Positions 31,362 through 32,799 of a stretch of 64,000 nt of DNA are shown here, piece by piece. The notes under the pieces are model-generated. The model saw only the letters and a program-made list of their open reading frames with translations, did no database searches and had not been told where the DNA came from. This DNA comes from Syntrophaceae bacterium (GTDB lineage Bacteria > Desulfobacterota > BSN033 > UBA1163). Both the position numbers and the translations under genes were made by a program. The stretch spans positions 69,826 to 133,825 of the forward strand of contig JACAEX010000020.1 in NCBI GenBank assembly GCA_013388635.1, given 5' to 3'. The stretch's first letter is position 1, and the number at the start of each line of letters is the position of its first letter.

Positions 31362-31892
31362 TCACTCCTTGAGCCACTCTGGTTTTGCACCGAAGATTTC
31401 GGCCTCCTCCGGGATCTTCTTTTCCAGCATCTGTTTCGCTTCATCGATCTGACTCTTGCATGTCTCCATCTGACTCTTCACTTCGTCTCTTTCCCTCCGG
31501 AGACTCGCTCTCTCCGAGGTGCTCTTCGAATTATTAAACCTCTCGGTCAACTCATTATACTTGATTCTCAGGTTAATTTCCCTCTCCTGATATTCTTTCA
31601 ATCTCTTTTTCCACTCTTCAATCCGGCCTTTCCAGTAGTCCTGCCCCCTGCCCAGTCGATCCTTCCCGTTATCCCCTTTCTTCGCCGGGGCCGATCCAGT
31701 TTCCAACTTTCGATTGGAGCTCTCCTCTGGTGTCTCCAACTTCTCTATTTGAGGCCGGTATCTTTCAGGAACCTGGGTGATGTCGTCTGTAAAATGCACC
31801 CCCCCTTTTTCATCAACCCACTTGTAAACTTGTGCGAAAGAGGGCTGTGAAAGGAGGATGACCAGAATGATGGGTAGGGTATACTTCATCAT
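31362..31892 (-). CDS. DUF4124-domain periplasmic protein with coiled coil
   Basis: 176 residues. Signal peptide (about 1-20, cleavage after SFA), then the DUF4124 motif QVYKWVDEKGGVHFTDD, a linker, and a long charged coiled coil (about 85-160). The domain is a beta-propeller-like or WW-like fold of unknown role, exported to the periplasm. Two Met codons (31892, 31889) can start it. A near-perfect sigma-54 element lies only 14 bp upstream, so the mRNA would be almost leaderless if that promoter is used. Confidence 0.82.
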   Translation of the reverse strand: MMKYTLPIILVILLSQPSFAQVYKWVDEKGGVHFTDDITQVPERYRPQIEKLETPEESSNRKLETGSAPAKKGDNGKDRLGRGQDYWKGRIEEWKKRLKEYQEREINLRIKYNELTERFNNSKSTSERASLRRERDEVKSQMETCKSQIDEAKQMLEKKIPEEAEIFGAKPEWLKE

Positions 31893-31904
31893 AATGATGA
31901 TCTA

Positions 31905-31921
31905 AGCAAATCTTGTGCCAA
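31905..31921 (-). promoter_or_regulatory. Sigma-54 (-24/-12) promoter before DUF4124 gene
   Basis: Minus strand TTGGCACAAGATTTGCT is an almost exact match to the consensus, with 10 bp between GG and GC. Predicted start about 31894, at most a few bases before the ATG. Confidence 0.6.
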
Positions 31922-31936
31922 GAAAAGACTTATTTC

Positions 31937-31965
31937 TTGATTTTTTTATCTTTTTGCATTAATAT
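31937..31965 (+). promoter_or_regulatory. Sigma-70 promoter of candidate sRNA
   Basis: TTGATT (31937-31942), 17-bp spacer, TAATAT (31960-31965) on the plus strand. No plus-strand protein gene follows; the next plus-strand signal is the terminator at 32029-32066. Confidence 0.6.
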
Positions 31966-31971
31966 CTATAT

Positions 31972-32066
31972 GGTCGGTACACCGAATCCTATCACCTCCT
32001 TGTTTCACCCCCACTCGGTGTCCCGACTGGGATCAGTTATGACCCTCCTCTAACTGATCCCTTTTT
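31972..32066 (+). ncRNA. Candidate small RNA with C-rich anti-Shine-Dalgarno loops
   Basis: About 95 nt between the promoter above and an intrinsic terminator. Stem 1 pairs GTCGG (31973-31977) with CCGAC (32023-32027) and ACACCGA (31979-31985) with TCGGTGT (32015-32021), one mismatch. It encloses a 29-nt loop containing CACCTCCTT (31993-32001) and CACCCCC. Stem 2 is the terminator, whose loop also contains ACCCTCCTC. Loops complementary to GGAGG are typical of trans-acting translational repressor RNAs. There is no overlapping plus-strand ORF. It is not the 16S 3' end. Confidence 0.55.
32029..32066 (+). terminator. Intrinsic terminator of the candidate sRNA
   Basis: GGGATCAGTTA (32029-32039) and TAACTGATCCC (32051-32061) form a perfect 11-bp stem followed directly by TTTTT. 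On the opposite strand no T-run follows, so it acts on plus-strand transcripts only. Confidence 0.8.
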
Positions 32067-32109: not shown

Positions 32110-32799
32110 CTAATCCGATATCTTAAATCCTCGAACCACCTCCGAGGGGAATCCCAGCTGCGAAACAAATTCCCGTTCAATCTCTTTGAACCCAATCTTT
32201 TCAAGGAATGGCTGCACGAAGACGCCTCTGCATCCTGCGAGAAGGGGTGGTTTTAGCTTATAAATCTCCTCGTAGATCTGATTCAGCCACTTCTCACCTT
32301 TCGTCATGTTAACCAGCACGATCCTTCCGCCACGCTTCAACACCCTTTTGAATTCCTCCAGGATCGGCACGAAATCTTCAACGGGTAAAATATCAAACAT
32401 ATATTGATTCATCAAAACATCGAAGGTCCCGTCTTCGAAGGGCAGGTGACGGCAATCACAAAGATAGAGCGTGTAGTTCTCTTTCCCCGTCCTTTGAATC
32501 CTTTTCTTAGCCCTTCTCAACATCTTCATGGAGATATCAATTCCGTCCACCCACCCGCACGAATTCCTCTTTAAGATCTCGACGAAATTGAGCCCTGTGC
32601 CAAGAGCGACTTCGAGGACCCTCTCGCCCTCATGAATGGAAGCCAGATTGAGAGCCCGTTGACGGGCTTTCCACTCCATCAGGATTCCAAAGAGATCGTA
32701 GATTGAAGCGATCCGATCATACTTTCGAATGATCTCGTCATGGGTCAACCTCGCTTCTAAGATATGTGAGTTCATCAGATCGATCTCCTTTTCATCCAT
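32110..32799 (-). CDS. Class I SAM-dependent methyltransferase
   Basis: 229 residues. Motif I is VLEVALGTGLNFVEIL, followed by DGIDISMKMLRRAKKR and FEDGTFDVLMNQYMFDILP, similar to UbiE/MenG-type small-molecule methyltransferases. The acidic loop (LYLCDCRHLPFEDGTFD) completes the Rossmann fold. It is the last gene after the MoxR/GXGXG/VWA module, 58 bp behind VWA, so it may be part of it. The substrate is unknown. Confidence 0.85.
   Translation of the reverse strand: MDEKEIDLMNSHILEARLTHDEIIRKYDRIASIYDLFGILMEWKARQRALNLASIHEGERVLEVALGTGLNFVEILKRNSCGWVDGIDISMKMLRRAKKRIQRTGKENYTLYLCDCRHLPFEDGTFDVLMNQYMFDILPVEDFVPILEEFKRVLKRGGRIVLVNMTKGEKWLNQIYEEIYKLKPPLLAGCRGVFVQPFLEKIGFKEIEREFVSQLGFPSEVVRGFKISD

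What the first reader, a model, noticed from the sequence alone, without database searches (positions are those of the whole stretch)
31937..32066. Candidate anti-Shine-Dalgarno small RNA
Directly visible: TTGATT-17 bp-TAATAT on the plus strand, a 12-bp stem with one mismatch enclosing a 29-nt loop with CACCTCCTT and CACCCCC, and a perfect 11-bp terminator stem followed by TTTTT whose loop also contains ACCCTCCTC. No plus-strand protein lies between promoter and terminator. C-rich loops that can pair with GGAGG are known from several bacterial sRNAs, such as the cuckoo family. I do not recognise this particular sequence. Inference: a trans-acting translational regulator, possibly linked to the nearby sigma-54 and PilZ region.
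Basis: partly seen in the sequence, partly recalled or inferred. Interest (0 to 1): 0.8.

Follow-up and report, generated by a model that had tools for sequence, protein, structure and literature searches.

The report
Small RNA pairing with ribosome-binding sites
This is very probably a real small regulatory RNA, found only in one lineage of uncultured Desulfobacterota-type bacteria, that exposes a copy of the ribosome's mRNA-binding tail and most likely switches off a cell-wall-cutting enzyme (an M23 peptidase) by pairing over the start region of its mRNA.

Summary
Window 31972-32066 (+) carries a sigma-70-type promoter, a 14-pair stem with a 29-nt C-rich loop, and an 11-bp terminator stem with a CCCTCCTC loop and T-tail. 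Folding is far below shuffles (z -7.4). A covariance model finds it in 16 of 17 genomes of the host family, in 2 of 4 of a sister family, and nowhere else among 395 phylum genomes except one marginal class-level hit. Stem 1 has compensatory changes in 9 of 14 pairs. G-U pairs fit only the + strand. In the sister family stem 2 changes by compensated UU/AA to CC/GG while its CCCTCCT loop is kept.

Loop 1 is conserved as AUCACCUCCUUGUUUCACCCCC: the usual 16S rRNA tail plus an extension. It is the best non-self site in sampled DNA of four genomes. In G001 loop and leader changed together, including an indel. Best reading: a trans-acting sRNA that blocks translation. Not a tested member of alpha-r14/cuckoo (24.4 bits, cut-off 58.8). 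The sigma-54/PilZ link is unproven. No expression data exist.

The parts
31937..31965 (+). sigma-70-type promoter TTGATT-17-TAATAT of the sRNA
   Evidence: read; TTGAT(T/A) and TATAAT-like hexamers about 6 nt before the RNA in most relatives
31972..32066 (+). sRNA, about 95 nt
   Evidence: fold z -7.4; CM hits in 16 of 17 family genomes and 2 of 4 sister-family genomes; start and end inferred from promoter and T-tail
31972..31985 (+). stem 1, 5' arm
   Evidence: 9 of 14 pairs with compensatory change in 17 sequences, 0 of 500 shuffles as good
31986..32014 (+). loop 1: ATCACCTCCTT (31991-32001) plus GTTTCACCCCC; proposed seed for target pairing
   Evidence: conserved in most family members; complementary to M23 peptidase leaders
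32015..32028 (+). stem 1, 3' arm
32029..32061 (+). terminator hairpin, 11-bp stem, loop TGACCCTCCTC
   Evidence: nearly invariant in the family; two compensated pairs (UA to CG) in the sister family with CCCTCCT kept
32062..32066 (+). T-tail of the intrinsic terminator
   Evidence: conserved
31905..31921 (-). sigma-54-type -24/-12 site TTGGCAC-N5-TTGCT facing the DUF4124 gene; probably not part of the sRNA
   Evidence: single match in the window, 0.03 expected; conserved in the host-family main copies, L008 with one change
31362..31892 (-). DUF4124 protein gene, conserved divergent neighbour
   Evidence: Pfam PF13511; next to the sRNA in nearly all host-family loci and in both sister-family loci

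Best explanation
A trans-acting base-pairing small RNA of about 95 nt. It is transcribed from its own promoter and ends at the 3' hairpin. Stem 1 holds loop 1 open. Loop 1 pairs with mRNA ribosome-binding sites, and its extended sequence UUGUUUCACCC gives specificity for the leader of an M23 (murein endopeptidase-like) gene next to secA, covering that gene's Shine-Dalgarno and so blocking ribosome entry (translational repression, inferred). Hfq is encoded in these genomes and may help (inferred). Shown computationally: structure, strand, conservation, complementarity and one coordinated change. Not shown: transcription, and direction and strength of regulation.
For: Covariation of stem 1 and + strand G-U pairs, about 19 cells against 2 A-C cells when the outermost pairs are left out. 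Compensated stem 2 with unchanged loop in the sister family. CM hits in 16 of 17 family genomes. Target is an M23 peptidase (PF01551, E 7.6e-32). M23 leaders carry TGAAACAAGG(R)G or close variants in most of the 13 genomes that have both sRNA and gene. It is the highest-scoring contiguous non-self site in 1.74 million strand positions of G004 (41 against 33 for the next), and top in samples of G001, G010 and G011; in the window's own genome it is eighth among all sites and one of the best at a gene start, 13 pairs with one G-U. Swap test: the G001 leader scores 35 with its own sRNA and at most 26 with the other 12. In 6 genomes (G011, G000, G003, G010, G004, G001) none of 2000 shuffled leaders reaches the own score. 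Hfq in 17 of 17 genomes.
Against: No transcript data. The target was noticed through a weak covariance-model hit in G011, so G011 itself is not independent evidence, and orthologous leaders are related to one another. G012 has a normal sRNA but no complementary M23 leader; G006 and G014 pair poorly (in G014 both loop and leader are degraded). Only G001 shows a clear coordinated change, and there the predicted full hybrid gains just 1.8 kcal/mol over the separate folds, against 10-13.5 in the others tested. Only parts of the genomes were scanned for competing sites. Sister-family M23 leaders could not be tested.
Confidence: 0.68

Rival explanations
1. A general anti-Shine-Dalgarno RNA: both C-rich loops mimic the 16S tail and dampen many mRNAs with strong ribosome-binding sites; the M23 match is only one of many.
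For: Loop 1 contains ATCACCTCCTT and loop 2 CCCTCCTC; loop 2 is the most conserved part. AAGGAGGTGAT occurs 33 times in the own genome against 1 for the reversed control.
Against: Loop 1 is conserved beyond the anti-SD core (GTTTCACCCCC), and the M23 leader matches that extension; many of the listed AAGGAGGTGAT sites do not lie just before an ORF.
Confidence: 0.2
2. A cis-acting element of the divergent DUF4124 gene: the region holds regulator-binding sites for its sigma-54-type promoter, and the hairpins are DNA inverted repeats or a bidirectional terminator.
For: Conserved TTGGCAY-N5-TTGC site close to the sRNA promoter in the host family; DUF4124 synteny.
Against: G-U pairs and stem covariation mean selection on a plus-strand RNA; in G013 the DUF4124 gene is gone but the RNA remains; the second copy in G003 has no such neighbour.
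Confidence: 0.06
3. A protein-binding RNA (sponge) whose C-rich loops bind an RNA-binding protein rather than mRNAs.
For: Two C-rich loops on stable stems; loop 2 and stem 2 nearly invariant in the family.
Against: Coordinated change of loop 1 and the M23 leader in G001 is not expected for a pure protein sponge.
Confidence: 0.06

Closest known systems
NfeR1 / alpha-r14 sRNAs (Rfam RF02344 ar14; Rhizobiales)
   Same: Intergenic sRNA with successive hairpins whose unpaired parts expose anti-Shine-Dalgarno motifs while the stems vary in sequence (PMC10746234); best Rfam match to this region.
   Different: alpha-r14 has three hairpins each with CCUCCUCCC; here two hairpins, CACCUCCUUG...CACCCCC and CCCUCCUC; 24.4 bits against gathering 58.8, and no relative of the window RNA matched.
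Cuckoo RNA family (Reinkensmeier and Giegerich 2015, cited in PMC10746234; the paper itself is not held)
   Same: Anti-SD loops on stable hairpins.
   Different: Described in other bacteria; no covariance-model link found here beyond the weak ar14 match.
PmaR of Agrobacterium tumefaciens (PMC6234868)
   Same: Long-stem RNA with a C-rich loop that contacts cell-wall gene mRNAs.
   Different: PmaR activates most of its targets, and its pairing region is stated not to be an anti-SD region; sequence relation not tested.

Membership tests
alpha-r14 / ar14 (RF02344) | covariance-model score at or above the gathering cut-off | tested here: not met
   24.4 bits against 58.8; no match in 16 relatives at E up to 1
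alpha-r14 / ar14 (RF02344) | three hairpins each with CCUCCUCCC in the unpaired part (PMC10746234) | tested here: not met
   two hairpins; loops CACCUCCUUG...CACCCCC and CCCUCCUC
alpha-r14 / ar14 (RF02344) | Hfq-independent | not testable with these tools
   Hfq gene present, binding unknown
trans-acting anti-Shine-Dalgarno sRNA (functional kind) | own promoter and intrinsic terminator in an intergenic region | tested here: met
trans-acting anti-Shine-Dalgarno sRNA (functional kind) | conserved structure with exposed C-rich loop complementary to SD regions | tested here: met
trans-acting anti-Shine-Dalgarno sRNA (functional kind) | conserved complementarity to a distant mRNA leader, with co-change | tested here: met
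   co-change clear only in G001; exceptions G012, G014, G006
trans-acting anti-Shine-Dalgarno sRNA (functional kind) | transcribed and alters target translation | not testable with these tools
   no RNA-seq or bench data

The most novel reading that the evidence does not exclude
A lineage-specific sRNA that doubles as a 16S-tail mimic for many strong ribosome-binding sites and as a dedicated, co-evolving repressor of one murein endopeptidase gene next to secA, coupling cell-wall cleavage to translation or secretion capacity.
Probability: 0.15. Interest if true: 0.65.

Novelty: new member of a known kind. Interest (0 to 1): 0.52.

Why it matters
It appears to be an undescribed sRNA family (no Rfam match above any cut-off) in uncultured Desulfobacterota-type bacteria, where few sRNAs with targets are known to me. 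Its structure is supported by covariation, and it comes with a specific, testable target in cell-wall remodelling. If true, it is a further independent case of anti-SD loops on hairpins evolving as a regulatory device, with a natural pair of matching changes in G001 that predicts the outcome of a compensatory-mutation test.

Tried and rejected
Rfam at gathering threshold: only two tRNAs. Low-threshold ar14 match judged convergence. Genome-wide exact pattern in named genomes gave zero because I wrote four N where the spacer is three; not evidence of absence. The pattern TGGCAYRNNNTTGCW for the sigma-54 site had the wrong spacing, corrected. CM hits L123 (a terminator-like hairpin beside tRNA genes) and L122 (an mRNA leader, which became the target lead) are not sRNAs. 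Free duplex-energy ranking proved too permissive for a C-rich loop, since purine-rich stretches score anywhere; replaced by contiguous-helix scores. Paralogous proteins similar to the M23 N-terminus lack the leader motif. Replication origin near the sRNA rejected: no GC-skew switch in G001. Literature searches found no earlier description.

Full report
Observation. The RNA lies in a 217-nt gap between two minus-strand genes, a DUF4124 protein (31362-31892) and a UbiE-like methyltransferase (32110-32799). The plus strand folds into two hairpins at -36.8 kcal/mol; none of 200 dinucleotide shuffles does as well, z -7.4.

Distribution. The region is single copy in the own genome. BLASTN finds it in 15 of the 16 other genomes of the family, and a covariance model in 16 of 17 including the own one; G003 has a second copy (L019). 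In the sister family G021 and G022 score 56-59 bits with R1 and 72-74 with R2, which was built with them; in G020 only a decayed remnant seems to be left beside the DUF4124 gene. One marginal hit in a third family, G019, 26-29 bits, keeps C-rich loops but not the neighbours. Among 395 phylum genomes nothing else matched (stricter filters). Named records of the host family are MAGs labelled Syntrophaceae, Deltaproteobacteria or Thermodesulfobacteriota.

Structure and strand. In 17 sequences 96.9% of paired cells are standard pairs; 9 of 14 pairs of stem 1 have changes on both sides, 0 of 500 shuffles as good, and slid controls collapse. Related sequences weaken the shuffle control, which is why the slid control matters. 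Leaving out the outermost pairs, stem cells with G-U number about 19 against 2 with A-C; on the other strand these G-U pairs would be A-C mismatches, so the RNA is the plus strand. The promoter hexamers and T-tail agree. Stem 2 is nearly invariant inside the family, but in the sister family two pairs change from U-A to C-G with the CCCTCCT loop kept.

Loops. Loop 1 reads TATCACCTCCTTGTTTCACCCCC in most members; ATCACCTCCTT is the usual end of bacterial 16S rRNA (established knowledge; the 16S of this genome was not seen among held loci). The sister family has TGTTTCACCTCCCA. Loop 2 is CCCTCCTC. No ORF of useful length lies in the RNA, and loop indels are not multiples of three.

Target. A weak model hit in G011 (L122) is not an sRNA but the leader of a gene with GGGGTGAAACAAGGAGGTAATTTTG. 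The gene encodes an M23 peptidase (PF01551), and in L122 a SecA-like ORF follows it (by eye). Orthologues in 13 other family genomes gave leaders: GGGTGAAACAAGGAGG in G004, GGGTGAAACAAGG in G010, TGAAACGAGGAGG in the own genome, and variants elsewhere. Scored by contiguous helix, the M23 leader is the top non-self site in the sampled DNA of G004 (1.74 million strand positions, 41 against 33), G001 (787,400; 35 against 34), G010 and G011; in the own genome it is eighth among all sites and one of the best at a gene start. G011 led me to the gene, so the other genomes are the test.

Co-change. G001's sRNA loop differs by a lost base and a G-to-A change (CCTCC-TATTTCACCC); its M23 leader reads GGGTGAAATAGGAG, complementary over 14 nt. 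In the swap table that leader scores 35 with its own sRNA and at most 26 with 12 others. In G014 both loop and leader have lost the motif; G002, without the sRNA, has GGTGAGCAAGGAGG. Against: G012 has a normal sRNA and no motif, G006 pairs poorly, and for G001 the predicted full hybrid is only 1.8 kcal/mol better than the separate folds.

Mechanism. Pairing ends at about -5 to -9 from the start codon in most genomes and covers the Shine-Dalgarno, so repression of initiation is the simplest inference. Hfq is encoded in all 17 genomes. A general dampening role through the anti-SD motifs remains possible.

Context. A sigma-54-type site faces the DUF4124 gene close to the sRNA promoter in the host family. 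It was not found in the sister family or at L019, so control of the sRNA by sigma-54 is not supported. In G013 the DUF4124 gene is gone while site and sRNA stay, which leaves a link open.

Comparison with the known. The only Rfam lead is ar14 at 24.4 bits against a cut-off of 58.8. The RNA works like alpha-r14 (anti-SD loops on variable stems, PMC10746234) but is not shown to be a member. Verdict: a real, lineage-restricted, apparently undescribed sRNA family of a known functional kind, with a specific predicted target.

Noticed in passing
L049 (own genome C21) and L249 (G004 C11): A conserved 29-aa signal-peptide-like small ORF (MKRIAIELLIIAITVMAYVLPVLAEGGGY) with a perfect AAGGAGGTGATCC ribosome-binding site; possibly another target.
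   Followed up: partly
about 50-200 nt downstream of the sRNA in L002-L016; absent in the window: A second conserved intergenic block with DnaA-box-like motifs (TTCCCACATTTTTTGT...CCTGTTGATAAC) and more conserved sequence; no GC-skew switch in G001.
   Followed up: partly
L019 (G003 C56) 1483-1571 and 2027-2101: Second sRNA copy about 450 nt from a c-di-GMP-I-GGC riboswitch, without the DUF4124 neighbour.
   Followed up: no
window 31905-31921 (-): Sigma-54-type site whose expected start point lies within a few bases of the DUF4124 start codon, which would make a nearly leaderless mRNA.
   Followed up: no
L123 (own genome C64) about 1501-1557: A terminator-like hairpin next to tRNA genes uses the same GGGATCAG/CTGATCCC stem as the sRNA.
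   Followed up: no
L102 (G020): Apparent decayed remnant of the sRNA terminator next to the DUF4124 gene, suggesting loss in that genome.
   Followed up: partly
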